Shown here: positions 15,807-32,090 of the stretch, piece by piece
Layout: every line of letters begins with the position of its first letter
Numbering within the stretch: the first letter of the stretch is position 1
Assembly: GCF_004339665.1 (NCBI RefSeq)
Contig: NZ_SMMU01000002.1
Location: 310,001 to 374,000, forward strand
Origin: Azotobacter chroococcum
Lineage (GTDB): Bacteria; Pseudomonadota; Gammaproteobacteria; Pseudomonadales; Pseudomonadaceae
Direction of reading: 5' to 3'
Length of the DNA stretch: 64,000 nt
Notes under the pieces: model-generated
Seen by the model: only the letters and a program-made list of their open reading frames with translations
Told to the model about the DNA's origin: nothing
The model's database searches: none
Program-made: the position numbers and the translations under genes

Positions 15807-16730
15807 TCACGACGCCTGCCGGTTGTCCGCCGCGGGCGTTGCTTCCTGGCTGCCGAGCTGGCGGACCGTATCGAGGAAGGCGCGCAGGATCGGCGAGCTG
15901 TCGCCCTTGCGGTACAGGCAGGCCAGTTCGATCTCGGCCTTGCCGCGGCAGCGCAGGGCGCGGTATTCCACGCCCGGCAGGCGCAGGTTGACGGTGGACT
16001 GGGGCACTACGCAGAGCCCCAGCCCGCCGGCCACCAGGGCGATGCTGGTGGTCACGTCGGTGACCTCCTGAACCACCCGGGGGGTGGCGTCGTAGTCGGC
16101 GAACAGCCGCCGCACATGGGTGGTCAGGCCCTTCCGGACCCCGCGCGGGTAGAGGATGAAGGGCTCCTCCAGTACCTCGCCCAGCTCGATGCTGTCCCGC
16201 GCCGCCAGCGGGTGCTTGGCCGGCAGCGCCAGCATCAGCGCCTCCCTGCGCACCAGTTCCTGCTCGATGTCCGGCTCGTTCGGCACCAGGCGGTTGAAGC
16301 CGATGCTGAGCCGGCGCTCGCGCAGCGCCTGGATCTGCGCGTCCTTGTCCATCGGATGCAGGGAGATCTCCACGGCCGGATGGGTGCGGCCGAACGCCTG
16401 CAGCACCCGCGGGATGAAGTCGAGGATCGACGAGCCGAAGATGCCGATCACCAGACTGCCCTTGCGGCCCTCGGCCAGCAGGCGCGACTCGTCGGCCGCG
16501 TGCTGCAGCTGGGCAAGGATGTTCAGCGCCTGCTGGTAGAAGGCCTGGCCGGCGTCGGTCAGTGCGACGCGCTTGGAGTTGCGCTCCAGCAGGACGGCGG
16601 GAATGGCTTCCTCCAGCTGCTGGATCTGCCGGCTCAGCGCGGGCTGGGTGATGTACAGCCGTTCGGCGGCGCGATTGAAGTTCAGCTCTTCGGCCACCGC
16701 GACGAAATACTTCAACTGCCTAATTTCCAA
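15807..16730 (-). CDS. LysR-family regulator of the aromatic island
   Basis: A 307-residue LTTR. The winged HTH occupies residues 1-60 (NRAAERLYITQPALSRQIQQ) and the effector domain follows (GSLVIGIFGSSILDFIPRVL). It resembles the CatR/BenM branch. The frame opens with TTG, giving MEIRQLKYFVAVAEELNF, a normal LTTR start with GGTGA just upstream; no in-frame ATG is nearby. It is divergent from the XylS-like gene. A GATGCC-N5-GGTATC dyad 37-53 bp upstream of its start, repeated upstream of xylJ, is the likely binding site, so I infer control of both catabolic promoters and autoregulation. Confidence 0.9.
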   Translation of the reverse strand: MEIRQLKYFVAVAEELNFNRAAERLYITQPALSRQIQQLEEAIPAVLLERNSKRVALTDAGQAFYQQALNILAQLQHAADESRLLAEGRKGSLVIGIFGSSILDFIPRVLQAFGRTHPAVEISLHPMDKDAQIQALRERRLSIGFNRLVPNEPDIEQELVRREALMLALPAKHPLAARDSIELGEVLEEPFILYPRGVRKGLTTHVRRLFADYDATPRVVQEVTDVTTSIALVAGGLGLCVVPQSTVNLRLPGVEYRALRCRGKAEIELACLYRKGDSSPILRAFLDTVRQLGSQEATPAADNRQAS

Positions 16731-16766
16731 GGGATCACCATGCTGCGCGGACAGGGGAGGGGCAAT

Positions 16767-16783
16767 GATGCCGTTCGGGTATC
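16767..16783 (+). promoter_or_regulatory. LysR-type operator (copy 1), upstream of the xylS-like gene
   Basis: GATGCC-N5-GGTATC is an inverted repeat with the LTTR T-N11-A pattern. Its centre is about 64 bases before the predicted transcription start of the xylS-like gene, the classical LTTR recognition-site position. The same dyad, with the same 19-bp gap to the -35 box, lies upstream of xylJ. Confidence 0.75.
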
Positions 16784-16802
16784 ATTCGGTGATTGTATTC
16801 GA

Positions 16803-16832
16803 TTGGACGGCATCGCCACGGCTGTTTATCTT
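16803..16832 (+). promoter_or_regulatory. Predicted promoter of the xylS-like gene
   Basis: TTGGAC (-35) and TATCTT (-10) are separated by 18 bp. A 17-base block covering the -35 (ATTCGATTGGACGGCAT) is identical at the xylJ promoter, and CTGTTTA before the -10 is also conserved. Confidence 0.6.
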
Positions 16833-16978
16833 CAACTTAGGTGGCGTGCCGGCATCAGGAGAGCAATCGGTAGAATCCCCCGCCAGGGATGGATGGTGTG
16901 CGTTGTGAAGAACGAGTCCAGAGCGGCAAAGCACCGCCTGGGTTTTATAAGAAAAACAATATCGAGAGGCCTTGAGTG

Positions 16979-17938
16979 ATGGAGTTTTCTTTACTGAAAG
17001 AAAAGAGCGTGGTCTTCCAGGGCGCCGACCCCTACGACGTTTCCGGCTACGTGAACCAGCATGTCGGCTCCCATTCCATCCGCCTGTCGCAGTCCAGCCA
17101 TCCTGCCGCCGACCTCAGCCATCGCAAGTTCGGCGATCTCGACCTCTGCCGGATCAGCTACGGCGGCACCGTGCGCGTCACCTCCGAGGCGCTGGAAACC
17201 ATCTATCACCTGCAGATCCTGCTCAAGGGCCATTGCCTGTGGCGCGGCGCGCGCGGCCAGGAGCACCACTTCGTGCCGGGCGAGCTGCTCTTGATCAATC
17301 CGGACGATCCGGTGGACCTGACCTATTCGCAGGACTGCGAGAAGTTCATCGTCAAGATGCCCGGCTCCCTGCTCGAGGCGGCCTGTGCCGAGAACCACTG
17401 GCACTGGCCCGGCGAGGGCATCCGCTTCACCGCCAGCCGGCACAGCCTTCAGGAGATCGGCGGCCTGCTCAACCTGCTCGGCCTGGTCTGCGAGGAGGCC
17501 GAGTCCGGCATCGCGCCGCCCCGCCTGCAGGAGCACTACGGGCGGATCATCGCCAACAAGCTGCTCTGCCTGCAGAACAACGTGCGCCGCGAGCAGCCGG
17601 GCAGCGCCTCGGCGATCTTCGAGCGGGTCGTGCACTTCATCGAGGAGAACCTCAAGCAGGACATCACCCTCGAACAGCTGGCCGGGCTGGTGAACGTCAG
17701 CCCGCGCTCGCTCTATGCGCTGTTCGAGAAGCACGCCAGGACCACGCCCAGGCATTACGTGCGGCAGAAGAAGCTCGAGCGGATCAACGCCAGCCTGCGC
17801 GACCCCTCGGCGCCGGTGCGCAACATCACCGAGGTGGCGCTCGACTACGGCTTCCTGCACCTGGGGCGCTTTTCCGAATCCTACCGCAACGCCTTCGGCG
17901 AGCTGCCTTCGGATACCCTGAGGCGCCGCGCCTGCTGA
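16979..17938 (+). CDS. xylS: XylS/BenR-like AraC-family activator
   Basis: Benzoate/toluate-responsive activator of ring dihydroxylation genes. The 319 residues resemble TOL-plasmid XylS throughout: [19 protein letters not shown] at the N-terminus, the [14 protein letters not shown] region, and the C-terminal double HTH with [20 protein letters not shown] and the ending [12 protein letters not shown] prefer the ATG at 16979 (GAGAGG 9 bases upstream); an adjacent GTG at 16976 would add one residue. A terminator-like hairpin follows, and its target boxes lie just before xylX. BenR is the closest alternative name. Confidence 0.93.
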
Positions 17939-18029: not shown

Positions 18030-18093
18030 TGCAGAGAGTGGATAAAGGTCCTGCAGGAAACGGATATTGCCGGTCCTTGCCGATTCTTACGAT
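18030..18093 (+). promoter_or_regulatory. Tandem XylS/BenR boxes and promoter of xylXYZL (Pm-like)
   Basis: Two direct repeats match TGCA-N6-GGNTA: TGCAGAGAGTGGATA (18030-18044) and TGCAGGAAACGGATA (18052-18066), spaced 22 bp. The downstream box overlaps by 2 bp the position expected for a -35 (18065-18070), 17 bp before a TACGAT -10 (18088-18093). This is the arrangement known for the TOL Pm promoter. xylX starts 35 bp after the -10. Confidence 0.85.
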
Positions 18094-18128
18094 GGGGCTC
18101 TGACACAAAAACAACGGAGCCGACGGCA

Positions 18129-19490
18129 ATGACTCTTGGAATCGACGAGATCAATGGCTTGCTGGAAGAGGATCGCGAAAAGGGCCTCTATCGCTGCAAG
18201 CGGGACATGTTCATCGACGCGGAACTCTTCGAGCTGGAGATGAAGCACATCTTCGAAGGGAACTGGATCTATCTGGCCCACGACAGCCAGATCCCCGAGA
18301 AGAACGACTACTGCACCACCTACATCGGACGCCAGCCGATCATCATCGCCCGCACCAAGGACGGCGAGCTGAACGCCTTCATCAACGCCTGCAGCCACCG
18401 CGGCGCGGCGCTGTGCCGCTTCAAGAGCGGCAACAAGGCTACCTACACCTGTCCGTTCCACGGCTGGACCTTCAGCAACTCCGGCAAGCTCCTGAAGGTG
18501 AAGGACCCGGCCGATGCGGGCTACCCGGACAGCTTCAACTGCAACGGCTCGCACGACCTGCAGAAGATCGCCCGCTTCGAGTCCTACCGCGGCTTCCTGT
18601 TCGGCAGCCTGAATGCCGATGTCCAGCCGCTGAGCGAGTTCCTCGGCGAGTCGGCGAAGATCATCGACATGGTGGTCGACCAGTCGGCGGAAGGCCTGGA
18701 AGTGCTGCGCGGCGCCTCCACCTACGTGTTCGAGGGCAACTGGAAGCTGCAGGCCGAGAACGGTGCCGACGGCTACCACGTGACCGCCACCCACTGGAAC
18801 TACGCCGCGACCCAGAACCAGCGCAAGCTCAAGGAGGCCGGCGACGACATCCGCGCCATGAGCGCCGGCGGCTGGGGCAAGAAGGGCGGCGGCTTCTACG
18901 CCTTCGAGAACGGCCACATCCTGCTCTGGACCCGCTGGGACAACCCCGAAGACCGTCCGCTGTACCGGCGCCGCGACGAGCTGGCCCAGGCGTTCGGCCA
19001 GGCCCGCGCCGACTGGATGATCGGCCATTCGCGCAACCTCTGCCTCTACCCCAACCTCTACCTGATGGACCAGTTCGGTTCGCAGCTGCGCGTGCTCCGG
19101 CCGATCTCGGTCGACAAGACCGAGGTGACCATCTACTGCATCGCGCCCAGGGGCGAGAACGCCGAGGCGCGCGCCCACCGCATCCGCCAGTACGAAGACT
19201 TCTTCAACGTGACCGGCATGGCCACCCCGGACGACCTCGAGGAGTTCCGCGCCTGCCAGCAGGGTTTCCAGGGCCGCGCGGCGGTCTGGAACGACATGTC
19301 CCGCGGTGCTACCCACTGGATCGACGGGGCTGACGAGGCCGCCAGGGAAATCGGCCTGGCGCCGAAGATGAGCGGCGTGCGCACCGAGGACGAAGGGCTT
19401 TACATCATGCAGCACCGCTACTGGCAGGAGCGCATGACCGCGGCACTGCAGCAAGAACAGGACAAGCTGATTCACGTGGAGGGCAACTGA
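18129..19490 (+). CDS. xylX: Toluate/benzoate 1,2-dioxygenase, large (alpha) subunit
   Basis: Catalytic subunit of the ring-hydroxylating dioxygenase that turns benzoate or toluate into the cis-1,2-dihydrodiol carboxylate. The Rieske [2Fe-2S] ligands are in CSHRGAALC and CPFHGW, and mononuclear-iron histidines lie in [12 protein letters not shown]. Length is 453 residues, as for XylX/BenA. It is the first gene after the XylS boxes and lies 2 bp before xylY. BenA versus XylX cannot be separated by inspection; the xyl name is used because meta-pathway genes follow. Confidence 0.95.
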
Positions 19491-19492
19491 TC

Positions 19493-19981
19493 ATGAACGC
19501 ATCCTACGAAGCCGTACGCGACTTCCTCTACCGTGAAGCCCGCTACCTGGACGAGAAAGACTGGGACAGCTGGCTGGAGCAGTACGCCCCCGACTGCACC
19601 TTCTGGATGCCGTCCTGGGACGATCGCGACCAGTTGACCGAAGATCCGCAGAGCCAGATCTCGCTGATCTGGTACGGCAGCCGCCGCGGTCTGGAGGACC
19701 GGGTGTTCCGCATCCGCACCGAGCGCTCCAGCGCGACCATTCCGGATACCCGCACCTCGCACAACATCAGCAACCTAGAAATCCTCGAGCAGACCGGCGA
19801 GCTGTGCCGTCTGCGCTTCAACTGGCACACCCTGAACTTCCGCTACAAGACCGTCGACCAGTTCTACGGCACCAGCTTCTACACCCTGGACATCCGCGGC
19901 GAGAACCCGCTGATCAAGGCGAAGAAGGTCGTGCTGAAGAACGACTACGTGCGTCACGTCCTCGACATCTACCACGTCTGA
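19493..19981 (+). CDS. xylY: Toluate/benzoate 1,2-dioxygenase, small (beta) subunit
   Basis: A 162-residue structural subunit of the alpha3-beta3 oxygenase. It has the family pattern DFLYREARYLDEKDWDSWL near the start, and ends with KVVLKNDYVRHVLDIYHV. No catalytic metal site is expected or seen. It is tightly coupled to xylX. Confidence 0.95.
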   Translation: MNASYEAVRDFLYREARYLDEKDWDSWLEQYAPDCTFWMPSWDDRDQLTEDPQSQISLIWYGSRRGLEDRVFRIRTERSSATIPDTRTSHNISNLEILEQTGELCRLRFNWHTLNFRYKTVDQFYGTSFYTLDIRGENPLIKAKKVVLKNDYVRHVLDIYHV

Positions 19982-20083
19982 ACACAGCTCGAAGACCGCG
20001 CTCCGCCGGCGCCGTGCGGGACCCCTGCGTCCCGCCCGCCGCCCGGCGGCTGCTCCAACCGAAGAATGAGAGCGGGGTGCCAT

Positions 20084-21094
20084 ATGTCATACAAGGTTGC
20101 GCTGAATTTCGAAGACGGGGTCACCCGTTTCATCGAGGTGGACAGTGGCGAAACCGTCGCCGACGCCGCCTACCGTCAGGGCATCAATATTCCGCTGGAC
20201 TGCCGCGACGGAGCCTGTGGCGCCTGCAAGTGCCTTGCCGAGGCCGGTCGTTACGACCTGGGCGACAACTACATCGAGGACGCGCTGAGCGAGGCGGAGA
20301 AGGCCGAAGGCCTGGTGCTGACCTGCCAGATGCGTCTGGAGAGCGACTGCGTGCTGCGCATTCCGGCCTCCTCCGAAGTCTGCAAGACCGAGCAGGCCAG
20401 CTACGAGGCGCTCATCAGCGACGTGCGCGCGCTGTCCGACAGCGTGATCAGCCTGTCGATCAAGGGCGCGTCCCTGGCCAGGCTGTCCTTCCTGCCGGGC
20501 CAGTACGTCAATCTCAGGGTGCCGGGCAGCGACCAGACCCGTGCCTACTCGTTCAGCTCGCTGCCGCAGGACGGCGAGGTCAGCTTCCTGATCCGCAACG
20601 TGCCGGGCGGCCTGATGAGCGGCTATCTCAGCCGGCAGGCCAGGGCCGGCGATGCCATGACCCTGACCGGGCCCTTGGGCAGTTTCTACCTGCGCGAGAT
20701 CCGCCGGCCGCTGCTGATGCTGGCCGGCGGCACCGGCCTGGCGCCTTTCACCGCCATGCTGGAGAAGATCGCCGAAAGCGGCAGCGAGCATCCGATCCAC
20801 CTGATCTACGGCGTCACCCACGATGCCGACCTGGTGGAGATGGACCGGCTGGAGGAGTTCGTCGCGCGCATTCCCAATTTCAGCTTCACGGCCTGCGTCG
20901 CCAGCCCGGAGAGCAGTCATCCGCACAAGGGCTACGTCACCCAGCACATCGCGCCGGTGCACCTGAACGACGGCGAGGTGGACATCTACCTGTGCGGTCC
21001 GCCGCCGATGGTCGAGGCGGTCAACGGGTTCCTCCGCGAGCAGGGCATCCAGCCGGCCAATTTCCACTACGAGAAGTTCGCCGCCAGCGTCTGA
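20084..21094 (+). CDS. xylZ: Toluate/benzoate dioxygenase electron-transfer component (ferredoxin-NADH reductase)
   Basis: Feeds electrons from NADH to the XylXY oxygenase. The N-terminal plant-type [2Fe-2S] domain has CRDGACGACKC and a later LTCQM cysteine. FAD binding follows (RAYSFSSLP), and the NAD domain has LAGGTGLAPFTAMLEK and CGPPPMVEAV. I chose the ATG opening MSYKVALNFEDG (336 residues); an upstream in-frame ATG would add six atypical residues. A 102-bp gap separates it from xylY, longer than elsewhere in the block. Confidence 0.95.
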   Translation: MSYKVALNFEDGVTRFIEVDSGETVADAAYRQGINIPLDCRDGACGACKCLAEAGRYDLGDNYIEDALSEAEKAEGLVLTCQMRLESDCVLRIPASSEVCKTEQASYEALISDVRALSDSVISLSIKGASLARLSFLPGQYVNLRVPGSDQTRAYSFSSLPQDGEVSFLIRNVPGGLMSGYLSRQARAGDAMTLTGPLGSFYLREIRRPLLMLAGGTGLAPFTAMLEKIAESGSEHPIHLIYGVTHDADLVEMDRLEEFVARIPNFSFTACVASPESSHPHKGYVTQHIAPVHLNDGEVDIYLCGPPPMVEAVNGFLREQGIQPANFHYEKFAASV

Positions 21095-21140
21095 GCCGCT
21101 GCCCCGTGTCCGCACGGGCGGCCCCAAGGATAGAAACGCC

Positions 21141-21914
21141 ATGCATGAAAAACGCTTTCAAGACAGGGTCGCAGTGGTCACCGGCGCGGCCCAGGGCATC
21201 GGCCGGCGCGTCGCCGAGCGGCTGGTCGCCGAGGGCGCCCGTCTGGTCGCCGTGGACCGCTCCGAACTGGTCCACGAGCTCGAGGCGCTGGGCGCCGGCT
21301 GGGTGCTGACCCTGACCGCCGACCTGGAGCGCTTCGCCGACTGCCAGGGGGTAATGACGGCGGCGGTCGAGCGCTTCGGCCGCCTCGACATCCTGATCAA
21401 CAACGTCGGCGGCACCATCTGGGCCAAGCCCTTCGAGCACTACGCCGAAGAACAGATCGAGGCCGAGGTGCGCCGCTCGCTGTTCCCCACCCTGTGGTGC
21501 TGCCGCGCCGCCCTGCCGGCGATGCTCGAACAGGGCAGGGGGGCCATCGTCAACGTCTCCTCGATCGCCACCCGCGGCGTCAACCGCGTGCCCTACGGCG
21601 CGGCCAAGGGCGGCGTCAACGCGCTCACCGCCTGCCTGGCCTTCGAGACCGCCGAGCGCGGCATCCGCGTCAACGCCACCGCCCCCGGCGGCACCGAGGC
21701 GCCGCCGCGGCGCATCCCGCGCAACGCCGCCGAGTCGAGCGGGCAGGAGAAGGCCTGGTACCAGCAGATCGTCGAGCAGACCGTCGACAGCTCGCTGATG
21801 AAGCGCTACGGGACCATCGACGAGCAGGTCGGGGCGATCCTCTTCCTGGCTTCCGACGAAGCCTCCTATATCACCGGCACGATCCTGCCGGTAGGCGGCG
21901 GCGACCTGGGTTGA
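21141..21914 (+). CDS. xylL: cis-1,2-dihydroxycyclohexadiene-1-carboxylate dehydrogenase
   Basis: Short-chain dehydrogenase that oxidises and decarboxylates the dihydrodiol to catechol with NAD+. It has the nucleotide motif VTGAAQGIGRRVAERL, NNVGG, the catalytic Ser (NVSSIA) and YGAAKGG (Tyr and Lys). Length is 257 residues. It closes the upper ring-attack block; a stem-loop and the transporter gene follow. Confidence 0.94.
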   Translation: MHEKRFQDRVAVVTGAAQGIGRRVAERLVAEGARLVAVDRSELVHELEALGAGWVLTLTADLERFADCQGVMTAAVERFGRLDILINNVGGTIWAKPFEHYAEEQIEAEVRRSLFPTLWCCRAALPAMLEQGRGAIVNVSSIATRGVNRVPYGAAKGGVNALTACLAFETAERGIRVNATAPGGTEAPPRRIPRNAAESSGQEKAWYQQIVEQTVDSSLMKRYGTIDEQVGAILFLASDEASYITGTILPVGGGDLG

Positions 21915-21943: not shown

Positions 21944-21985
21944 GCACGTGGTTTTGCGATTACAACAACAACAGAGATCCACGCC

Positions 21986-23317
21986 ATGCAGACAATCGAT
22001 GTCAATCGCCTCATCGACGAGGCCCGCTTCAACCGCTTCCACTGGATGGTGCTGTGCTGGTGCGCACTGCTGCTGATCTTCGACGGCTATGACCTGTTCA
22101 TCTACGGGGTGGTCCTGCCGGTCTTGATGAAGACCTGGAACCTGACACCGCTGGAGGCTGGCGCGCTGGGCAGCTACGCGCTGTTCGGCATGATGTTCGG
22201 CGCGCTGTTCTTCGGCCCGCTGGCCGACAAGATCGGCCGCAAGAAAGGCATCGCCATCTGCTTCCTGCTGTTCAGCGGCTTCACCGTGCTCAACGGCTTC
22301 ACCCGCACCCCCACCGAGTTCGGCATCTGCCGCTTCATGGCCGGCCTCGGCATCGGCGGGCTGATGCCCAACGTGGTGGCGCTGATGAACGAATACGCGC
22401 CGAAGAAGATCCGCAGTACCCTGGTGGCCATCATGTTCAGCGGCTATTCGCTGGGCGGCATGCTCTCCGCCGGGCTCGGCATCTACATGCTGCCGCGCTT
22501 CGGCTGGGAGGCGATGTTCCAGGCCGCCGCCGTGCCGCTGTTGCTGCTGCCGCTGATCCTCTGGTTCCTGCCCGAATCGGTTGGCTACCTGCTGCGCCAG
22601 GGCCATACCGAGCAGGCGCGCGCCATCCTCCGCCGCGTCGATCCGGACCGGCTACTGACGGATGACGATTTGCTGGAGATGGCCGAGGCCAAAAGCGAGG
22701 GCGCGCCGGTGCTGCAGCTGTTCCGCGAGGGCCGCGCGCTGCGCACCCTGTCGATCTGGGTGGCGTTCTTCTGCTGCCTGCTGATGGTCTATGCGCTCAG
22801 CTCCTGGCTGCCGAAGATGATGGCCAGCGCCGGCTACAGCCTCGGCTCCAGCCTGTCGTTCCTGCTGGTGCTGAACTTCGGCGCGGTGTTCGGCGCCATC
22901 GGTGGCGGCTGGCTGGGCGACCGGCTGAACCTGCCCAAGGTGCTGGTGGTGTTCTTCGCCGTCGCCGCCCTGTCGATCGGCCTGCTCGGCTTCAAGACGC
23001 CGACCCCGGTGCTCTACGGCCTGATCGCCATCGCCGGCGCCACCACCATCGGCTCGCAGATCCTGCTCTACGCCTGCGCCGCGCAGTTCTACAGCATGGC
23101 CATCCGCTCCACCGGTCTCGGCTGGGCCTCGGGGATCGGCCGCAACGGCGCCATCGTCGGCCCGCTGCTCGGCGGGGCGCTGGTCGGCATGAGCCTGCCG
23201 CTGCAGGTGAACTTCATCGCCTTCGCCATCCCCGGACTGGTCGCGGCCATCGCCATGACCCTGTTCTGTGCGCACCGGCAGGCGACGGGCGCCGCGGCCG
23301 GCGAGGCGCTGGCGTAA
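21986..23317 (+). CDS. benK: BenK-like aromatic acid/H+ symporter (MFS, AAHS family)
   Basis: Inner-membrane importer of benzoate-type acids, 443 residues with 12 predicted helices. The AAHS features are the acidic TM1 motif LLIFDGYDLFIYGVVLP and the loop-2/3 motif GPLADKIGRKKGI. The start ATG lies at MQTIDVNRLIDEARFNRFHW; longer in-frame extensions run back into xylL. It lies between the dioxygenase block and the porin, so uptake and catabolism are co-located. The exact substrate (benzoate or toluate) is inferred from context. Confidence 0.9.
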   Translation: MQTIDVNRLIDEARFNRFHWMVLCWCALLLIFDGYDLFIYGVVLPVLMKTWNLTPLEAGALGSYALFGMMFGALFFGPLADKIGRKKGIAICFLLFSGFTVLNGFTRTPTEFGICRFMAGLGIGGLMPNVVALMNEYAPKKIRSTLVAIMFSGYSLGGMLSAGLGIYMLPRFGWEAMFQAAAVPLLLLPLILWFLPESVGYLLRQGHTEQARAILRRVDPDRLLTDDDLLEMAEAKSEGAPVLQLFREGRALRTLSIWVAFFCCLLMVYALSSWLPKMMASAGYSLGSSLSFLLVLNFGAVFGAIGGGWLGDRLNLPKVLVVFFAVAALSIGLLGFKTPTPVLYGLIAIAGATTIGSQILLYACAAQFYSMAIRSTGLGWASGIGRNGAIVGPLLGGALVGMSLPLQVNFIAFAIPGLVAAIAMTLFCAHRQATGAAAGEALA

Positions 23318-23551: not shown

Positions 23552-24823
23552 ATGAAGCGAAAACTGCAATTCGCTATAACGCTTGCGACGGCCGGCGGTA
23601 TTCCTGCAGCAACGGCCGAAAGTGGATTCATCGAAGACTCCACCGCCACCCTGCAACTTCGCAATTATTATTTCATGCGCGACTTCTCCGATATCCAGGG
23701 ACGCAACCAGCAGTCCAAGGCGGAGGAGTGGGCGCAGGGTTTCATCCTCAACTTCAAGTCCGGTTATACCCAGGGACCGGTCGGCTTCGGCCTCGACGCG
23801 CTCGCCCTGGTGGGCGTCAAGCTCGACAGCAGTCGCGACCGCACCAACACCGGCCTGCTGCCGGTGCACGACGACGGCGAGGCGGCCGACGAGTACGCCC
23901 GCCTGGGGCTGACGCTGAAGACCCGCTTCTCCAACACCGAGCTGCGCTTCGGCGAGCAGACGCCGAACCTGCCGATCCTGGCGCACACCGACAACCGCCT
24001 GCTGCCGCAGACCTACCAGGGCACGACGCTGATCTCCCGGGAGATTCCCGGGCTGACCCTGCAGGCCGGCCGGCTGAACTCCGCCAAGATGCGCAACTCG
24101 ACCGACGACGGCGAGATGACCGCGCTGATCATCAACGACCCGATCAACCCGCGGCGCCTGGCCCACGTCACGGGCGACCACTACAACTACCTCGGCGGCG
24201 ACTACAGCTTCAACGCCAACCGCACCACGCTGAGCTTCTGGCAGGGCCAGCTGGAGGACATCTACCAGCAGCGCTTCTACGGCATCAAGCATGCCCTGCC
24301 GCTGGGCGCCTGGACCCTGGCCGCCGACATCGGCTACTACACCGCCCAGGACGACGGCAACACCGATGCCGGCAGCCTCGACAACCAGCTGCTCTACGGG
24401 CTGTTCTCGGCCAAATACAAGGGTCACACCTTTTATGCCGGCTATCAGGGCGTCTACGGCGACGACGGCTTCCTGCGCATCGGCGACACCCTCTCGCCGC
24501 TCGGCAACGAACTGCCGACCTACCAGTTCTCCGCGCCGGACGAGCGCTCCTGGCAGATCCGCCACGACTTCGACTTCGCCAGCGTCGGTCTGCCCGGCCT
24601 GACCAGCACCCTGCGCTATGTCCAGGGCGACAACGTCGACACCGGCAGCCGCGGCTTCGAGGGCGAGGAGTGGGAGCGCGACCTCGACCTGGCCTACACC
24701 ATCCAGAGCGGCCCGTTGAAGAACGTCAGCATCCGCTGGCGCAACGCGATCGCCCGTTCCAACTACGCCAGCGACATCGATGAGAACCGCATCATCATCA
24801 ACTATGCGATCAAGTTGTTTTAG
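23552..24823 (+). CDS. OprD-family outer-membrane porin (BenF-like)
   Basis: Substrate-specific outer-membrane channel of 423 residues. The signal peptide ends near AATA-ESGF, and the mature start FIEDSTATLQLRNYYFMRDF is typical of OprD porins of the OpdK/BenF branch. It ends with alternating strands and a C-terminal Phe (IIINYAIKLF). A 234-bp upstream gap suggests its own promoter, but I found no XylS or LysR box there. A role in aromatic acid entry is inferred from its position. Confidence 0.9.
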   Translation: MKRKLQFAITLATAGGIPAATAESGFIEDSTATLQLRNYYFMRDFSDIQGRNQQSKAEEWAQGFILNFKSGYTQGPVGFGLDALALVGVKLDSSRDRTNTGLLPVHDDGEAADEYARLGLTLKTRFSNTELRFGEQTPNLPILAHTDNRLLPQTYQGTTLISREIPGLTLQAGRLNSAKMRNSTDDGEMTALIINDPINPRRLAHVTGDHYNYLGGDYSFNANRTTLSFWQGQLEDIYQQRFYGIKHALPLGAWTLAADIGYYTAQDDGNTDAGSLDNQLLYGLFSAKYKGHTFYAGYQGVYGDDGFLRIGDTLSPLGNELPTYQFSAPDERSWQIRHDFDFASVGLPGLTSTLRYVQGDNVDTGSRGFEGEEWERDLDLAYTIQSGPLKNVSIRWRNAIARSNYASDIDENRIIINYAIKLF

Positions 24824-25168
24824 TCGTCTTTATCCGGAGTTTCCTGTGCGTGCAATTAACACCGGGCCGTATGGGTATGTCGGGAGGTTGCAGGAAACAG
24901 GCTGCCGAACTGTTCCGCACAACGTTTTCAAAGTTTCAGGGTTATCTGCCGGGGAGGACAAGGCACAAATGCGAAACAGACTGTTGTCGTTTTGGTTGAT
25001 GATCGGAAAAAGGCATGTTTTCGCCTTCGGCCAAGTGCATTCGATCGAAAACCGGATATCCGGCAAGAACCTTTTCTCGAACTTGGGTCGGCAACTTCCG
25101 CCGGCGCAACAAGGCAATTGCCTGATTTGCCGGAAGTTCTTCGGCAATCGCGAAGAGAGGAATTCAAT

Positions 25169-25185
25169 GATGCCCTCAAGGCATC
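25169..25185 (+). promoter_or_regulatory. LysR-type operator (copy 2), upstream of the meta operon
   Basis: GATGCC-N5-GGCATC is a perfect inverted repeat with the LTTR T-N11-A pattern, 19 bp before the -35 box, as at copy 1. The full element aligns without gaps to the one upstream of the xylS-like gene over about 70 bases. Confidence 0.78.
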
Positions 25186-25204
25186 GTTTGGTGCCTAGAT
25201 TCGA

Positions 25205-25234
25205 TTGGACGGCATTGCTGCCCCTGTTTACCTT
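25205..25234 (+). promoter_or_regulatory. Predicted promoter of xylJIHQTEGK
   Basis: TTGGAC and TACCTT are separated by 18 bp, matching the hexamers and spacing of the xylS-like promoter. The weak -10 fits an activator-dependent promoter. The predicted transcript starts about 85 bases before xylJ. Confidence 0.6.
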
Positions 25235-25324: not shown

Positions 25325-26110
25325 ATGCGCCAAGCCCTGCTCAACCAGTACGCCGACGAGCTCTACCGCTCGCTCAAGGATTGCCGTCCCATCGCCCCGC
25401 TGACCGAGCGCGATCCGCAGCTCACCCTGGAGGAGGCCTACCAGATCCAGCTGCGCCTGATCGCCCGGCGCCTGGACGCCGACGGCGAGACCGTGATCGG
25501 CAAGAAGATCGGCGTCACCAGCCGGGTGGTCATGGACCTGCTCAAGGTCGACCAGCCCGACTTCGGCCACCTGACCTCCGGCATGCTCCGCGCGGATGGC
25601 GCGGCCATCGAGGCCGCCGGGCTGATCGCGCCGAAGGCCGAGGGCGAGATCGCCTTCGTGCTCAAGCACGAGCTGGCCGGTCCGGGGGTGACCGTCGCCG
25701 ACGTGCTGCGCGCCACCGAATACGTGGTGCCCTGCTTCGAGATCGTCGATTCGCGGATCGCCGACTGGAAAATCAAGATCCAGGACACCGTGGCCGACAA
25801 CGCCTCCTCGGCGCTGTTCGTGCTCGGCGATGCCGCCGTCGACCCGCGCCGCCTGGATCTTGGCGTGGTCGGCATGACCCTCGAACTCAACGGCGAGATC
25901 GCCGCCACCGGCGCCGGCGCCGCCGCGCTGGGCCATCCGGCCAACGCCGTGGCCTGGCTGGCCAACACCCTCGGGCGCCTGGAAGTGCCGCTCAAGGCCG
26001 GCGAGGTGATCCTCTCCGGCTCCCTCTCCACCATGCTGCCGGTCAAGGCCGGCGACAACCTGCGCATCAGCATCGGCGGCATCGGCTCGGCCGGCGTGCG
26101 TTTCGTCTGA
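25325..26110 (+). CDS. xylJ: 2-oxopent-4-enoate (2-hydroxypenta-2,4-dienoate) hydratase
   Basis: Adds water to 2-hydroxypenta-2,4-dienoate to give 4-hydroxy-2-oxovalerate. A 261-residue member of the hydratase/decarboxylase family, with metal-site region EGEIAFVLKHEL and the CFEIVDSRIADWKIKIQDTV block. I used the ATG at MRQALLNQYADELY; it follows a GCAGGAA site. It is the first gene of the meta block and 13 bp before its paralogue xylI, with which XylJ-type enzymes form a complex. Confidence 0.93.
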   Translation: MRQALLNQYADELYRSLKDCRPIAPLTERDPQLTLEEAYQIQLRLIARRLDADGETVIGKKIGVTSRVVMDLLKVDQPDFGHLTSGMLRADGAAIEAAGLIAPKAEGEIAFVLKHELAGPGVTVADVLRATEYVVPCFEIVDSRIADWKIKIQDTVADNASSALFVLGDAAVDPRRLDLGVVGMTLELNGEIAATGAGAAALGHPANAVAWLANTLGRLEVPLKAGEVILSGSLSTMLPVKAGDNLRISIGGIGSAGVRFV

Positions 26111-26123
26111 CAGGAGAATTTCG

Positions 26124-26912
26124 ATGAATCTCGACCCGCAAACCATCGAGCGCCTCGCCGCCCACCTCGACGCCGCCGAAACCGAGCGTCGCGAAGTCCA
26201 CAAGATCACCGACGACTACCCGGACATGGACTGGGAGGACGCCTACGCCATCCAGGACGCCCTGCGCGCCCTCAAGGAAGCCCGCGGCGTGCGCGTCGCC
26301 GGCCTGAAGATGGGCCTGACCTCCCACGCCAAGATGCGCCAGATGGGCGTCGTCGATCCGGTCTACGGCTTCATCACCGACTACGGCGCAGTGGCCGACG
26401 GCGGCGAGATCGACACCCAGCGGCTGATCCATCCCAAGGTCGAGGCGGAGATCGCCTTCGTCACCAAGCGCCCGCTGAAGGGCCCGGGCTGCCACATCGG
26501 CAGCGTGCTGGCGGCCACCGACTTCATCCTGCCGGCGGTGGAGATCATCGACTCGCGCTACGAGAACTTCCGCTTCGACCTGAAGAGCGTGATCGCCGAC
26601 AACACCTCGTCGGCGCGCTACGTCCTCGGCGGCACCCACCGCAACGCCGAAGGCATCGACCTGAAGAACCTCGGCGTGGTGATGGAGAAGAACGGCGAGG
26701 TGGTGGCCATGGCCTCCGGCGCGGCGGTGCTCGGCCATCCGGCGCAGAGCGTGGCGATGCTCGCCAACATGCTCGGTGCGCGCGGCCGGGAGATTCCCGC
26801 CGGCACCCTGATTCTCACCGGCGGGGTCACCGAGGCGGTGGCGGTGGCCGCCGGCGACAACGTCACCGTGCGCTACCAGCATCTGGGCAGCGTATCGATG
26901 CGCTTCGTCTGA
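26124..26912 (+). CDS. xylI: 4-oxalocrotonate decarboxylase
   Basis: Decarboxylates 2-oxohex-3-enedioate to 2-hydroxypenta-2,4-dienoate; Mg-dependent and paralogous to XylJ. The 262 residues include RVAGLKMGLTSHAKMRQMGV and the metal-binding PKVEAEIAFV block with VEIIDSRYENFRFDLKSVIA. A GAGAA ribosome site precedes the start. It lies directly after xylJ. Confidence 0.94.
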   Translation: MNLDPQTIERLAAHLDAAETERREVHKITDDYPDMDWEDAYAIQDALRALKEARGVRVAGLKMGLTSHAKMRQMGVVDPVYGFITDYGAVADGGEIDTQRLIHPKVEAEIAFVTKRPLKGPGCHIGSVLAATDFILPAVEIIDSRYENFRFDLKSVIADNTSSARYVLGGTHRNAEGIDLKNLGVVMEKNGEVVAMASGAAVLGHPAQSVAMLANMLGARGREIPAGTLILTGGVTEAVAVAAGDNVTVRYQHLGSVSMRFV

Positions 26913-26928
26913 CTGCGAGGAAGACACC

Positions 26929-27120
26929 ATGCCCATCATGCAGGTTTACCTGATCGAAGGCCGCAGCGAAGAGCAGAAGGCCCGCCTGATCGACGCCCTG
27001 ACCCGGGCCACCGTGGATGCCCTCGACGCGCCGATCGAGAGCGTACGGGTGGTGATCACCGAGGTGCCCAACACCAACTTCGGCATCGCCGGGCAGACGG
27101 CCAAGCAGCGCGGCCGCTGA
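26929..27120 (+). CDS. xylH: 4-oxalocrotonate tautomerase
   Basis: A 63-codon gene; the mature hexameric enzyme converts the enol to the keto form of oxalocrotonate. After Met removal, the catalytic Pro1, the substrate-binding Arg11 and Arg39, and Phe50 are all at their canonical positions (PIMQVYLIEGR; VRVV; NTNFGIAG). It follows xylI by 16 bp. Confidence 0.96.
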   Translation: MPIMQVYLIEGRSEEQKARLIDALTRATVDALDAPIESVRVVITEVPNTNFGIAGQTAKQRGR

Positions 27121-27166
27121 GCGCGCCGCCCGACATCCAGCACAATGACAACAATCGAGGTTTTCC

Positions 27167-28123
27167 GTGGATAAGACATCGCCCCGTTGCAAGGTTGCGA
27201 TCATCGGTTCGGGCAACATCGGGACCGACCTGATGATCAAGGTGCTGCGCCATGGCAAGCACCTGGAAATGGGCGCCATGGTCGGTATCGATCCGGCGTC
27301 CGACGGTCTGGCGCGCGCCAGGCGGCTCGGCGTCGCCACCACCGCGCAAGGCGTGGAGGGCCTCTTGGCGCTGCCGGAGTTCAAGGACATCGGCATCGCC
27401 TTCGACGCCACCTCGGCCGGCGCCCATGCCCATCACAACGAGCTGCTGCAGGCCCACGGGGTGAAGGTCATCGACCTGACCCCGGCGGCCATCGGCCCCT
27501 ATGTGGTTCCGGCGATCAACCTGGACGCCGAGCTCGATGCGTCGAACATCAACATGGTCACCTGTGGCGGCCAGGCGACCATCCCGATGGTCGCTGCGGT
27601 GTCGCGCGTGGCCAAAGTCCACTACGCCGAGATCGTCGCCTCGATCGCCAGCAAGTCGGCCGGTCCCGGCACCCGCGCCAACATCGACGAGTTCACCGAG
27701 ACCACTTCCAAGGCCATCGAGGTGATCGGCGGGGCGCAGAAGGGCAAGGCGATCATCGTCCTCAACCCGGCCGAGCCGCCGCTGATCATGCGCGACAGCG
27801 TGTTCGTGCTCTCCGAGGTGGTCGACCGGGACGCCATCGCCGCCAGCGTCGCGGAGATGGTCGCCAGCGTGCAGCGCTACGTGCCGGGCTACCGGCTCAA
27901 GCAGGAGGTGCAGTTCGACCTGCTCGAGACGCCGGTCAACGTGCCGGGCGTGGGCATGCTCGCGGGCCTCAAGACCTCGATCTTCCTCGAGGTGGAAGGC
28001 GCCGCCCACTACCTGCCGGCCTATGCGGGCAACCTCGACATCATGACCTCGGCGGCACTGTCCTGCGCCGAGCGGATGGCCGAGCGCGGCAAGGTGCGGG
28101 TTCTGCCTTCGGCGCTGGTCTAG
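27167..28123 (+). CDS. xylQ: Acetaldehyde dehydrogenase (acylating)
   Basis: Converts acetaldehyde to acetyl-CoA in a channelled complex with the aldolase XylK. It has the NAD motif [14 protein letters not shown] and catalytic Cys133 in MVTCGGQA, with 318 residues. It begins with GTG, preceded by a GAGG site; no ATG suits the known N-terminus. Its aldolase partner is encoded four genes downstream, not adjacent. Confidence 0.95.
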
Positions 28124-28155
28124 ACGGTAGACCGGGCTCGCGGGAGGCGACGGCC

Positions 28156-28470
28156 ATGAGCTGGCTGCATCGGGTCCGCGAGCGGGTCAGTGGTGAAGTG
28201 CTTGAAGTGCGGCCTGGCGAATCGTTGCTGTGCGCCATGGAACGCCAGGGGAAGGGGTGCATTCCGGTCGGTTGCCGGGGCGGCGGCTGCGGAGTCTGCA
28301 AGGTCCGGGTGGTTTCCGGCCGGTTCGACTTCGGCGCCATGAGTTGCCGCCACGTAAGCGCCGACGAGCGCGGTCGGGGCCTGGCCCTGGCCTGCCGGCT
28401 GTTTCCCCTGGGCGATTCCGAGGTACAGGCGTGCGGCGAGGCAGTCCGGGCGGCTCCAGAACAACAATAG
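28156..28470 (+). CDS. xylT: XylT-type [2Fe-2S] ferredoxin
   Basis: A 104-residue chloroplast-type ferredoxin that reduces and reactivates oxidised catechol 2,3-dioxygenase. Cluster cysteines are in [10 protein letters not shown], preceded by the PVG-Cys segment and completed by LALACRL. It is immediately upstream of xylE, the usual place for this helper. Confidence 0.93.
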
Positions 28471-28478
28471 GTGTCATC

Positions 28479-29402
28479 ATGAAAAAAGGTGTAATGCGTC
28501 CGGGCCATATCCAGCTGCGCGTGTTGGACATGCAGGCTGCCCTCAAACACTACGTCGATCTGCTCGGGCTGATCGAGATGGACAGGGATGCGCAGGGCCG
28601 CGTCTATCTCAAGGGCTGGACCGAGATCGACCGGTTCTCGGTGGTGCTGCGCGAGGCCGACGAGCCGGGCATGGATTTCCTCGGCTTCAAGGTCGTCGAC
28701 GACGCCACCCTCTGCCGCCTGAGCGAGGAACTGGCCGCCTTCGGCTGCCAGGTGGAAAACCTGCCGGCCGGCGAACTCAAGGGCTGCGGTCGGCGCATCC
28801 GCTTCGAGGCGCCCTCCGGGCACTTCTTCGAGCTGTTCGCCGACAAGGAACAGACCGGCAAGTGGGGCGTCTCCGAGATCAACCCGGAAGCCTGGCCGCG
28901 CGGCCTGCAGGGCATGAAGGCGACCCGCTTCGACCACTGCCTGCTGTACGGCGTCGAGCTGCCGGAGACCCTGCGCCTGTTCACCGAGGTGCTCGGCTTC
29001 AGCCTCGCCGAGCAGGTGCTCGACGAGGCGGGCAGGCGCGTCGCCCAGTTCCTCACCGTCGGCATGAAGGCCCACGACGTGGCCTTCATCCAGCACCCGG
29101 AGAAGGGCCGCTTCCACCACGCTTCGTTCTTCCTCGAGAGCTGGGAGGATGTGCTGCGCGCCGCCGACCTGATCAGCATGAGCAACACCTCGATCGACAT
29201 CGGCCCGACCCGCCACGGCCTGACCCACGGCAAGACCATCTATTTCTTCGATCCCTCGGGCAACCGCAACGAGGTGTTCTGCGGCGGCGATTACCACTAC
29301 CCGGACCATCCGCCGGTGACCTGGACCGCCGACCAGTTGGGCAAGGCGATCTTCTATCACGACCGCCAGCTCAACGAACGCTTCCTCACCGCCCTGACCT
29401 GA
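28479..29402 (+). CDS. xylE: Catechol 2,3-dioxygenase
   Basis: Extradiol ring-cleavage enzyme converting catechol to 2-hydroxymuconic semialdehyde. The 307 residues are colinear with TOL XylE, and the Fe(II) ligands fall at His153 (RFDH), His214 (FHH) and Glu265 (GNRNEVF). The ending ILNERF-type tail ([11 protein letters not shown]) is also conserved. The start ATG is 8 bp after xylT. Confidence 0.97.
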
Positions 29403-29427
29403 TTCCAGATTTCACGAGATTGAGCCC

Positions 29428-30888
29428 ATGAAAGAGATCAAACATTTCATCAACGGCGAATACGTCGGTTCTGCCAGCGGCAAGCTGTTCGACAACGTCA
29501 ACCCGGCCAACGGCCAGGTGATCGCCAGGATCCACGAAGCCGGCGAGGCCGAGGTCGACGCCGCGGTCAAGGCCGCCCGCGCCGCCCTGAAAGGCCCCTG
29601 GGGCAAGATGAGCGTGGCCGAGCGCACCGAGATCCTGCATCGCGTCGCCGCCGGCATCACCGCGCGCTTCGACGAGTTCCTCGAAGCCGAGTGCCAGGAC
29701 ACCGGCAAGCCGAAGTCCCTCGCCTCGCACATCGACATCCCGCGCGGCGCGGCCAACTTTTCGGTGTTCGCCGACCTGGTGAAGAACGTGCCCACCGAGG
29801 CCTTCGAGATGGCCACCCCGGACGGCAGCGGCGCGCTCAACTACGGCGTGCGCCGGCCCAAGGGGGTGATCGGGGTGATCAGCCCGTGGAACCTGCCGCT
29901 GCTCTTGATGACCTGGAAGGTCGGCCCGGCGCTGGCCTGCGGCAACACCGTGGTGGTCAAGCCGTCCGAGGAAACCCCCACCACCACCGCGCTGCTCGGC
30001 GAGGTGATGAACGCCGCCGGCGTGCCGGCCGGCGTGTACAACGTGGTGCACGGCTTCGGCGGCGACTCGGCCGGCGCCTTCCTCACCGCCCACCCGGACG
30101 TCGACGGCATCACCTTCACCGGCGAAACCGGCACCGGCGAAACCATCATGCGTGCCGCGGCCAAGGGTGTGCGCCAGGTGTCCCTGGAGCTGGGCGGCAA
30201 GAACGCCGGCATCGTGTTCGCCGACGCCGACCTGGACAAGGCCATCGAGGGCACCCTGCGCTCGGCCTTCGCCAACTGCGGCCAGGTCTGCCTGGGCACC
30301 GAGCGCGTCTACGTGCAGCGGCCGATCTTCGACGCGTTCGTCGCCCGTCTGAAGGCCGGCGCCGAGGCGCTGGTGATCGGCGAGCCGAACGATCCGAAGG
30401 CCAACTTCGGCCCGCTGGTCAGCCACAAGCACCGCGAGAAGGTCCTCAGCTACTACCAGAAGGCCCAGGACGAGGGCGCCACCATCGTCACCGGCGGCGG
30501 CGTGCCGGACATGCCCCAGCACCTGGCCGGCGGCGCCTGGGTGCAGCCGACCATCTGGACCGGCCTGAAGGACGATTCGCCGGTGGTCACCGAGGAAATC
30601 TTCGGGCCCTGCTGCCACATCCGCCCGTTCGACACCGAGGAGGAAGCCGTCGAGCTGGCCAACAGCCTGCCCTACGGCCTGGCCTCGGCGATCTGGACCG
30701 AGAACGCCTCGCGCGCGCACCGCGTCGCCGGGCAGATCGAGGCCGGCATCGTCTGGGTCAACAGCTGGTTCCTGCGCGACCTGCGCACCGCCTTCGGCGG
30801 CGCCAAGCAGTCGGGCATCGGCCGCGAAGGCGGGGTGCACTCGCTGGAGTTCTACACCGAGCTGAAGAACGTCTGCGTGAAGCTGTGA
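29428..30888 (+). CDS. xylG: 2-hydroxymuconic semialdehyde dehydrogenase
   Basis: NAD-dependent aldehyde dehydrogenase of 486 residues feeding the oxalocrotonate branch. It has the cofactor region SPWNLPLLLMTWKVGPAL, the catalytic Glu in LELGGKNAG, and the catalytic Cys in NCGQVCLGTE. The gene lies between xylE and xylK. No hydrolase gene (xylF) accompanies it, so ring-fission product derived from benzoate must pass through this enzyme. Confidence 0.95.
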   Translation: MKEIKHFINGEYVGSASGKLFDNVNPANGQVIARIHEAGEAEVDAAVKAARAALKGPWGKMSVAERTEILHRVAAGITARFDEFLEAECQDTGKPKSLASHIDIPRGAANFSVFADLVKNVPTEAFEMATPDGSGALNYGVRRPKGVIGVISPWNLPLLLMTWKVGPALACGNTVVVKPSEETPTTTALLGEVMNAAGVPAGVYNVVHGFGGDSAGAFLTAHPDVDGITFTGETGTGETIMRAAAKGVRQVSLELGGKNAGIVFADADLDKAIEGTLRSAFANCGQVCLGTERVYVQRPIFDAFVARLKAGAEALVIGEPNDPKANFGPLVSHKHREKVLSYYQKAQDEGATIVTGGGVPDMPQHLAGGAWVQPTIWTGLKDDSPVVTEEIFGPCCHIRPFDTEEEAVELANSLPYGLASAIWTENASRAHRVAGQIEAGIVWVNSWFLRDLRTAFGGAKQSGIGREGGVHSLEFYTELKNVCVKL

Positions 30889-30943
30889 GGCAGTTACCCG
30901 TCAAGGAAAGCGGCACGAATAGCGCCGCCCGAGGAGAGCCAAG

Positions 30944-31993
30944 ATGACTTTCGATCCGAACAAGAAGCTGTACATCTCCGACGTGACCCTGCGCGACGGC
31001 AGCCACGCCGTGCGTCACCAGTACTCGATCAGGAACGTGCAGGACATCGCCCGTGCGCTGGACAAGGCCAGGGTCGACTCCATCGAGGTCGCCCACGGCG
31101 ACGGCCTGCAGGGTTCGAGCTTCAACTACGGCTTCGGCGCGCACAGCGACCTGGAGTGGATCGAGGCGGTCGCCGAAGTGGTGAGCCACGCGAAGATCGC
31201 CACCCTGCTGCTGCCCGGCATCGGCACGGTGCACCATCTCAAGGAAGCCTACGAGGCCGGCGCCCGGGTGGTGCGCGTGGCGACCCACTGCACCGAGGCG
31301 GACGTCTCCCGCCAGCACATCGAGTACGCGCGCGAGCTGGGCATGGACACCGTGGGCTTCCTGATGATGAGCCACATGACCACGCCGCAGAACCTGGCGG
31401 TCGAGGCGAAGAAGATGGAAAGCTACGGCGCCACCTGCATCTACGTGGTCGACTCCGGCGGCGCGCTGAGCATGAGCGACGTGCGTGACCGTTTCCGTGC
31501 GGTCAAGGACCTGCTCGACCCGTCGACCCAGACCGGCATCCACGCCCACCACAACCTGTCGCTCGGCGTGGCCAACTCCATCGTCGCGGTGGAAGAGGGC
31601 TGCGACCGCATCGACGCCTCGCTGGCCGGCATGGGCGCCGGCGCGGGGAACGCGCCGCTGGAGGTGTTCATCGCCGCGGCCGAACGCCTGGGCTGGAACC
31701 ACGGCACCGACCTCTACACCCTGATGGACGCCGCCGACGAGATCGTCCGCCCGCTGCAGGACCGTCCGGTGCGGGTCGACCGCGAGACTCTGGCCCTAGG
31801 CTACGCCGGCGTCTACTCGAGCTTCCTGCGCCATGCCGAGGTGGCGGCGAGCAAGTACGGCCTGAGCACCGTGGACATCCTCGTCGAGCTGGGCAGGCGG
31901 CGGATGGTCGGCGGCCAGGAAGACATGATCGTCGACGTGGCGCTGGATCTGCTGCGCCAGCAGGGCGAGGCTGCCCGCCAGGCGTCGGCGTAA
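30944..31993 (+). CDS. xylK: 4-hydroxy-2-oxovalerate aldolase
   Basis: Splits 4-hydroxy-2-oxovalerate to pyruvate and acetaldehyde; Mn-dependent and partner of XylQ. The DRE-TIM barrel start has [16 protein letters not shown], and the metal histidines lie in [15 protein letters not shown]. Length is 349 residues. It is the last catabolic gene before a strong terminator. Confidence 0.95.
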
Positions 31994-32068: not shown

Positions 32069-32090
32069 GCCAAGACAGGACGCGAACGCG

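What the first reader, a model, noticed from the sequence alone, without database searches (positions are those of the whole stretch)
16763..16836. Twin LysR-type activator promoters upstream of the xylS-like gene and of the meta operon
The 74-base stretch here aligns without gaps to 25165-25238. Shared parts: CAATGATGCC, the dyad GATGCC-N5-GGYATC (T-N11-A), a 19-bp gap, an identical 17-base block ATTCGATTGGACGGCAT, CTGTTTA, and -10 hexamers TATCTT/TACCTT. The dyad centre is about -64/-65 from the predicted starts, the classical LTTR position. The only LTTR gene in the window is adjacent and divergent. The dyad differs from the ATAC-N7-GTAT type of CatM/BenM, so it may be a distinct specificity.
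Basis: partly seen in the sequence, partly recalled or inferred. Interest (0 to 1): 0.78.

Follow-up and report, generated by a model that had tools for sequence, protein, structure and literature searches.

The report
Twin operators linking two benzoate-degradation operons
In Azotobacter, one LysR-type regulator most likely switches on both the activator of the benzoate-oxidation genes and the catechol ring-cleavage operon through two copies of one promoter; it is a tidy new example of a well-known type of control, not a new kind of system.

Summary
16763-16836 and 25165-25238 match ungapped at 55 of 74 positions and are each other's best match in the 4.86 Mb genome (E 4.9e-8); ATTGGACGGCAT occurs exactly only there. 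One detail is off: the dyad-to-17-mer gap is 13 bp; 19 bp is the gap to TTGGAC.

Both sites occur in 4 of 4 Azotobacter genomes searched. In 8 of 8 Pseudomonas genomes found with the orthologous LysR (67-73% identical), lysR lies divergent from dmpE, the first gene of the catechol meta operon, with the same composite operator between. So this is a LysR recognition site plus -35 activation site. In Azotobacter it flanks the xylS-like-benABCD block; a promoter tree is consistent with duplication.

The core is ATGC-N7-GCAT, one base per half-site from BenM/CatM's ATAC-N7-GTAT. Of four more distant relatives beside meta genes, three have ATAC left half-sites, one ATTC. The shift accompanies residue 31 (Ala versus Pro), one clade change only. 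Binding, inducer and start sites are untested. No proteobacterial catA passed its cut-off, so muconate is an unlikely inducer.

The parts
15807..16730 (-). lysR gene (LTTR, 307 aa, TTG start), proposed activator of both promoters; best match among solved structures is BenM
   Evidence: Pfam HTH_1 and LysR_substrate; phmmer BenM E 1.9e-56; TTG start in the 4 Azotobacter copies printed, ATG in the 6 Pseudomonas copies printed
16767..16783 (+). Site 1 recognition dyad GATGCC-N5-GGTATC (T-N11-A; core ATGC-N7-GTAT); 36 bp from the lysR start, so also a likely autoregulatory site
16797..16813 (+). Site 1 activation-site block ATTCGATTGGACGGCAT, centre 30 bp (about three helical turns) after the dyad centre, covering the -35-like TTGGAC (16803-16808)
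   Evidence: exact 12-mer ATTGGACGGCAT only twice in the genome; spacing
16827..16832 (+). Putative -10 TATCTT of the xylS-like gene promoter (18-bp spacer)
   Evidence: consensus only
16979..17938 (+). xylS/benR-like AraC-family regulator, 66.9% identical to TOL pWW0 XylS
18030..18066 (+). Two XylS/BenR boxes TGCA-N6-GGATA (18030-18044, 18052-18066) before benA: Pm-type promoter of the ben operon
   Evidence: only two TGCA-N6-GGNTA matches in 64 kb, both strands; same pair in the 3 other Azotobacter; box consensus recalled
18129..21914 (+). benABCD, benzoate dioxygenase and diol dehydrogenase
   Evidence: NCBIfam equivalogs above cut-off; benA ATG read by eye
21986..23317 (+). benK-like MFS transporter
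   Evidence: translation, start; named by eye and context, not scanned
23552..24823 (+). benF-like outer-membrane porin
   Evidence: no NCBIfam hit, named by eye and context
25111..25130 (+). Possible 20-nt relic of the 5' end of lysR upstream of site 2: 17 of 20 to Pseudomonas lysR starts, 72 nt from the ATTGGAC block as at site 1
   Evidence: 1 of 600 shuffles, 7 of 492 real window stretches as good; unrestricted gapped alignment not above chance
25169..25185 (+). Site 2 recognition dyad GATGCC-N5-GGCATC (core ATGC-N7-GCAT, perfect)
25199..25215 (+). Site 2 activation-site block ATTCGATTGGACGGCAT with -35-like TTGGAC 25205-25210
25229..25234 (+). Putative -10 TACCTT of the meta operon promoter
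   Evidence: consensus only
25325..31993 (+). Catechol meta-cleavage operon: dmpE 25325-26110, dmpH 26124-26912, tautomerase 26929-27120, dmpF 27167-28123, ferredoxin-like 28156-28470, catechol 2,3-dioxygenase-like 28479-29402, aldehyde dehydrogenase (HMS-dehydrogenase-like) 29428-30888, dmpG 30944-31993
   Evidence: NCBIfam for dmpE, dmpH, dmpF, Pfam for tautomerase, dioxygenase, Aldedh, dmpG; ferredoxin and C23O starts from the translation, ferredoxin named by eye

Best explanation
Both stretches are the operator-promoter of a LysR-type activator of the BenM/CatR/AphT class. A LysR tetramer should sit with one dimer on the ATGC-N7-GYAT dyad (centre about -65) and one on the activation block (centre about -35, three helical turns away), and on binding a co-inducer shift on the block so that RNA polymerase uses the weak TTGGAC-N18-TAYCTT promoter. 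Site 2 drives the catechol meta-cleavage operon (the arrangement kept next to lysR in Pseudomonas). Site 1 drives the xylS/benR-like gene and probably represses lysR itself. The xylS-like protein then activates benABCD from two XylS boxes. Because the same LysR sits beside meta operons that have no ben genes near them, its co-inducer is probably catechol or a meta-cleavage product rather than benzoate, which would make a positive feedback loop: benzoate, XylS-like, ben genes, catechol, LysR, more XylS-like protein and meta enzymes. Shown: sequence identity, spacing, conservation, genomic uniqueness, gene contexts. Inferred: binding, activation, autoregulation, duplication history. Guess: the inducer and the loop.
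For: Composite unique to the two places in the genome. Both sites in 4 of 4 Azotobacter genomes searched. Same composite at identical spacing (34 nt from ATGC to ATTGG) in 8 of 8 Pseudomonas lysR-dmpE intergenic regions. The 15 dyad columns hold 6 invariant ones against 5 of 48 flanking columns, Fisher p 0.016 over 16 related rows, 15 of them distinct. Four relatives of 43-52% beside meta genes carry a T-N11-A dyad and GTATTGGAC 34-35 nt on (spacing counted by eye). The two XylS boxes are the only ones in the window and lie before benA. 66.9% identity of the AraC protein to XylS. No catA above cut-off. Positions -64/-65 and -34/-35. No benA-D, benF or xylS-like match at E 1e-10 in the six Pseudomonas loci L005-L010.
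Against: No binding or expression data. The -10/-35 hexamers are poor consensus matches and start sites are predicted only. Site 1 has a degenerate right half-site (GTAT in 3, CTAT in 1 of 4 Azotobacter), so it may work mainly as lysR autoregulation. The block was located by its own pattern, so its invariance is not counted. In 2 of the 8 Pseudomonas genomes only dmpE, not the rest of the meta operon, was in the stretch fetched, and one of these (G691) has frame breaks in lysR and dmpE and a 43% benF-like match about 4 kb away. For catA, none of the 14 control genomes passed the cut-off, so the power of that search is not shown. A. chroococcum NCIMB 8003 is reported unable to use benzoate although its clusters look conserved (passage), so intact sequence does not prove a working circuit.
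Confidence: 0.75

Rival explanations
1. LysR regulates only the meta operon (site 2) and itself; site 1 is the lysR autoregulatory operator left next to lysR, and the xylS-like gene is expressed constitutively or from another promoter.
For: Site 1 has the weaker right half-site; LTTRs commonly bind beside their own gene (recalled).
Against: The activation block and CTGTTTATCTT downstream of site 1, pointing at the xylS-like gene, are identical in the 4 Azotobacter copies; a purely autoregulatory site would not need them on that side.
Confidence: 0.18
2. The XylS-like AraC protein, not LysR, acts at the twin promoters, as XylS does at Pm.
For: It is a close XylS relative adjacent to site 1.
Against: No TGCA-N6-GGNTA box at either site; the only two in the window are before benA. 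The element follows lysR in Pseudomonas loci L005-L010, where no xylS-like match was found.
Confidence: 0.04
3. The shared 74 bases are only a sequence duplication or chance similarity without regulatory meaning.
For: The two sites do look like duplicates: a 14-row promoter tree parts the 8 Azotobacter sites from 6 Pseudomonas ones, support 82.
Against: The strongest blocks are operator-like and are kept in 4 of 4 Azotobacter and 8 of 8 Pseudomonas promoters, while neighbouring DNA has diverged.
Confidence: 0.03

Closest known systems
BenM/CatM of Acinetobacter at PbenA and PcatB
   Same: LTTR with a T-N11-A dyad (Site 1) and further sites at two related promoters for benzoate and catechol genes (PMC6628147; passages and section 4.4 read); best solved-structure match. 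CatM is said there to favour ATAC-pyrimidine-N5-purine-GTAT; here ATGC-pyrimidine-N5-purine holds in 12 of 16 rows (counted by eye)
   Different: Half-site ATGC instead of ATAC; residue 31 Ala instead of Pro; targets a XylS-type regulator and a meta pathway; in the alignment BenM Arg160 is kept but Tyr293 is not (positions counted by hand), both named critical for BenM's benzoate response
AphT of Comamonas testosteroni TA441 and other Betaproteobacteria
   Same: CatR/ClcR-type LTTR that acts on lower-pathway (meta) aph genes with a T-N11-A motif like CatR/ClcR (PMC6449761; abstract and passages read)
   Different: Acts in phenol clusters with AphR/AphS; orthology to the Azotobacter LysR not tested because no AphT sequence was identified by name here
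XylR-xylS-Pm cascade of the TOL plasmid
   Same: A first regulator raises a XylS-type activator which switches a Pm-type promoter (cascade recalled; XylS 66.9% identical)
   Different: First regulator here is a LysR; in TOL a sigma-54-interacting regulator (gene beside xylS)
NahR nah/sal twin promoters
   Same: One LTTR, two similar promoters for upper and lower operons (recalled)
   Different: Different operator sequence (recalled, not tested)

Membership tests
LysR-type transcriptional regulators | N-terminal HTH_1 and LysR substrate-binding domain | tested here: met
   PF00126 84.6 bits, PF03466 145.5 bits, both above cut-off
LysR-type transcriptional regulators | T-N11-A dyad near -65 of the target and near the regulator's own gene | tested here: met
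   Position relative to predicted, not measured, starts
BenM/CatM equivalogs | NCBIfam BenM or CatM model above curated cut-off | tested here: not met
   201.7 of 600 and 169 of 580 bits; no NCBIfam model shown passed its cut-off (best 25 of 55 shown). Works like, but is not filed as, BenM
BenM/CatM operators | ATAC-N7-GTAT | tested here: not met
   Left half-site ATGC in 16 of 16 aligned rows; right GCAT in 11, GTAT in 3, CTAT in 1, TCAT in 1
AphT-like meta-pathway LTTRs | Gene beside a catechol meta-cleavage operon with a CatR-like motif | tested here: met
   Pseudomonas: dmpE beside lysR in 8 of 8, further meta genes seen in 6 of 6 loci reaching that far; relatives H5, H6, H9 and G931. In Azotobacter itself the meta operon is 8.4 kb away
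AphT-like meta-pathway LTTRs | Orthology with AphT of TA441 | not tested
   AphT sequence not fetched
XylS/BenR | High identity to XylS and tandem TGCA-N6-GGNTA boxes before the dioxygenase operon | tested here: met
   box consensus recalled
LTTR activators in general | Inducer-dependent activation | not testable with these tools
   needs wet experiments

The most novel reading that the evidence does not exclude
In the Azotobacter ancestor the divergent lysR/meta-operon promoter was duplicated around an inserted xylS-like-benABCDKF block, so that a LysR sensing catechol or a meta-cleavage product gained control of the benzoate sensor and closed a positive feedback loop; in the Pseudomonadaceae branch the operator moved from ATAC to ATGC together with residue 31 (Pro to Ala) of the recognition helix, a one-residue, one-base specificity switch.
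Probability: 0.35. Interest if true: 0.58.

Novelty: new member of a known kind. Interest (0 to 1): 0.42.

Why it matters
Azotobacter strains are known to use benzoate through catechol meta-cleavage (Hardisson et al. 1969, as cited in PMC4465626, passage seen; the same passage lists the ben and xyl/dmp genes of A. vinelandii). I found no description of how they are controlled in the listings. The finding gives a concrete regulator, two operators, a cascade to the XylS-type activator, and a simple residue-base pair to test for LTTR specificity. It is also a readable possible case of regulatory capture by promoter duplication.

Tried and rejected
lysR relic upstream of site 2: unrestricted gapped alignment of about 340 nt against the whole lysR (two lysR genes, four site-2 regions) gave scores of 10-14, inside the shuffle range (null maxima 14-16). 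Restricted to the first 63 nt of lysR in 8 orthologues, the match at one place is 17, 17, 16 and 15 of 20 in the four genomes. In one search, 0, 0, 5 and 1 of 200 shuffles were as good (W, G001, A. vinelandii, G002; for G002 the best match was a different one), 1 of 600 and 0 of 600 shuffles, but 7 of 492 real window stretches. The 72-nt distance equals that at site 1 of the window, but this distance varies from 60 to 73 among the 8 orthologues. A second lysR-like match (AGTTCTTCGGCAATCGCGA) is in the wrong order. I keep the relic as suggestive only.

Residue 31 and half-site: third base of the left half-site is G in 16 of 16 Pseudomonadaceae rows (12 genomes; residue 31 was printed for 10 of the 12 and is Ala in 10 of 10). 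It is A in 6 of 7 relatives with Pro31 (L149, L154, L155, L156, L158, L160) and T in 1 of 7 (L157). Right halves of L149, L155 and L158 are not GTAT. Residue 30 also differs in 3 of the 10 (Ser instead of Pro). Of the 7 relatives 4 are beside meta genes, L158 is beside chlorocatechol ortho-type genes, L149 and L154 were not placed. Wider sampling added one independent case, G931: class sample 2 of 369 (own genome and G931), its family 1 of 36 (G931 again). L011, L012 and L030 (40-43%) showed no such composite in the direction read; L030 has a lone ATGC-N7-GCAT and a GTATTGGAC on the other strand, not followed. This is a correlation on one clade, not a test.

Rejected: muconate as inducer (no catA above cut-off); XylS boxes at the twin sites; catR/benM naming.

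Limits and mistakes: one search kept the best 80 of 132 loci. One search failed on wrong coordinates. The benK query was an out-of-frame fragment, so its rows mean nothing.

Full report
What is there. The window lies in an Azotobacter genome: the closest named LysR orthologues are A. beijerinckii DSM 378 and A. vinelandii CA, 93%, and the three other genomes of the genus searched carry both sites. The order is lysR (minus strand), xylS-like gene, benABCD, a transporter (benK-like), a porin (benF-like), then a catechol meta-cleavage operon with dmpE, dmpH, tautomerase, dmpF, ferredoxin-like, catechol 2,3-dioxygenase-like, aldehyde dehydrogenase and dmpG.

The observation. 16763-16836 and 25165-25238 agree at 55 of 74 positions without gaps and are each other's best match in the genome (E 4.9e-8). 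ATTGGACGGCAT is found exactly at these two places only. GATGCC-N5-GGYATC is found exactly at four places; no ATTGGAC-N-GCAT showed up in the stretches fetched around the other two (one search scanned every locus then held). The gap from dyad to 17-mer is 13 bp, not 19; 19 bp is to TTGGAC. Dyad and block centres are 30 bp apart, at -64/-65 and -34/-35 of the predicted starts.

Conservation. A LysR orthologue was found in 6 of 398 genomes of the family sample (E 1e-80 or better; 4 of the 6 are Azotobacter), in 7 of 398 of the genus sample around G246 (E 1e-95) and in named Pseudomonas contigs (best 80 of 132 kept). In all 8, lysR lies divergent from dmpE with 148-157 bp between. In the six loci reaching that far (L005-L010), dmpH, dmpF, a C23O-type gene and dmpG follow; the aldehyde dehydrogenase matched in 2 of the 6. 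C23O is above cut-off in the two tested, L005 and L008. In G524 and G691 only dmpE was within the stretch; G691 shows frame breaks in lysR and dmpE. All 8 have ATGC-N7-GCAT (7 perfect, one ATGC-N7-TCAT) and ATTGGAC-N-GCAT at the same spacing as in Azotobacter. A second lysR copy in one genome (L007) has upstream DNA broken off inside the dyad. No benA-D, benF or xylS-like match was found in L005-L010 at E 1e-10; G691 has a 43% benF-like match about 4 kb from lysR.

Wider relatives. LysR proteins of 43-52% identity lie beside meta genes on an E. coli plasmid (dmp-like genes), a Burkholderia anthina plasmid and a Sphaerotilus plasmid (both with C23O), and in G931 (C23O-type gene). Left half-sites are ATAC, ATAC, ATTC and ATAC; two of the four (B. 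anthina, G931) have the exact ATAC-N7-GTAT quoted for BenM/CatM in PMC6628147 (passages and section 4.4 read). All four have GTATTGGAC 34-35 nt on (counted by eye). The Pseudomonadaceae regulators form one fully supported group in a 19-row tree. They have Ala at residue 31 in 10 of 10 printed, where the 7 relatives have Pro. Residue 30 of BenM and CbnR contacts the T of T-N11-A (PMC12609908, passages read); the base that changed here is the next one. In 3 of the 10 residue 30 is Ser. It is a single clade change, so only a correlation.

Duplication. The 8 Azotobacter sites share features absent in all 8 Pseudomonas promoters (TTCG before ATTGG, CTGTTTA). A tree of 14 promoters of 70 nt (8 Azotobacter, 6 Pseudomonas; G524 and G691 left out) parts the Azotobacter sites from Pseudomonas (82) and puts the four site-1 copies together (99); the site-2 copies are not resolved as a group. 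This fits a duplication before the genus split, perhaps from site 2. A 20-nt match to the lysR 5' end upstream of site 2 points the same way, but its statistics are mixed.

Mechanism. The best reading is a LysR activator with recognition and activation sites at both promoters. The xylS-like product (66.9% to pWW0 XylS) then acts at two boxes before benA, the only such boxes in the window, kept in the three other Azotobacter. The genome has no catechol 1,2-dioxygenase of the proteobacterial model above cut-off (best 51 of 392 bits; none of the 14 control genomes passed either), so cis,cis-muconate is not an expected inducer; catechol or a meta product is more likely because the regulator's constant partner is the meta operon. 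In the BenM alignment Arg160 is kept but Tyr293 is not (counted by hand), which speaks mildly against benzoate. The positive feedback loop follows from this but is not shown.

Known and new. LTTR control of meta genes (AphT) and cascades onto BenR (AphS in Thauera and Dechloromonas) are described in PMC6449761 (abstract and passages read), twin promoters under one LTTR are known (recalled, and BenM/CatM in PMC6628147). I saw no account of the Azotobacter control in the listings, of which several show only the best part; five papers were opened (PMC4465626, PMC5429807, PMC6628147, PMC6449761, PMC12609908), by passages. Subscription literature is mostly outside that library. Hence: a new member of a known kind, of moderate interest.

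Noticed in passing
window 16949-16959, 18107-18114, 21964-21971, 23531-23541, 28460-28467: Crc/Hfq-type CA motifs (AANAANAA; motif recalled) end 10-19 nt before the starts of the xylS-like gene, benA, the benK-like gene, the benF-like gene and the C23O-like gene; 22 matches in all on both strands of 64 kb. Those at the xylS-like gene and benA recur in the 3 other Azotobacter loci L083-L085. Suggests layered catabolite repression, as the title of a cited paper says for P. putida BenR (reference list).
   Followed up: partly
L007 12433-13329: A second lysR copy of the same length in a Pseudomonas genome; its upstream DNA breaks off inside the dyad and continues with unrelated DNA.
   Followed up: no
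L155 4594-5484: An E. coli IncC/IncR plasmid (RCS46_p) carries a LysR beside dmp-like meta-pathway genes with a similar composite operator, close to IS elements.
   Followed up: no
L030, 340 nt upstream of the LysR at 10001: A lone ATGC-N7-GCAT and, on the other strand, GTATTGGAC near a 43% LysR in a Moraxellaceae MAG.
   Followed up: no
window 32016-32540: HbpS-like gene just after dmpG; a heme-binding-protein gene also lies inside the B. anthina meta cluster.
   Followed up: no
window 16730: lysR starts with TTG in the 4 Azotobacter copies printed but ATG in the 6 Pseudomonas copies printed, possibly lowering regulator level.
   Followed up: no
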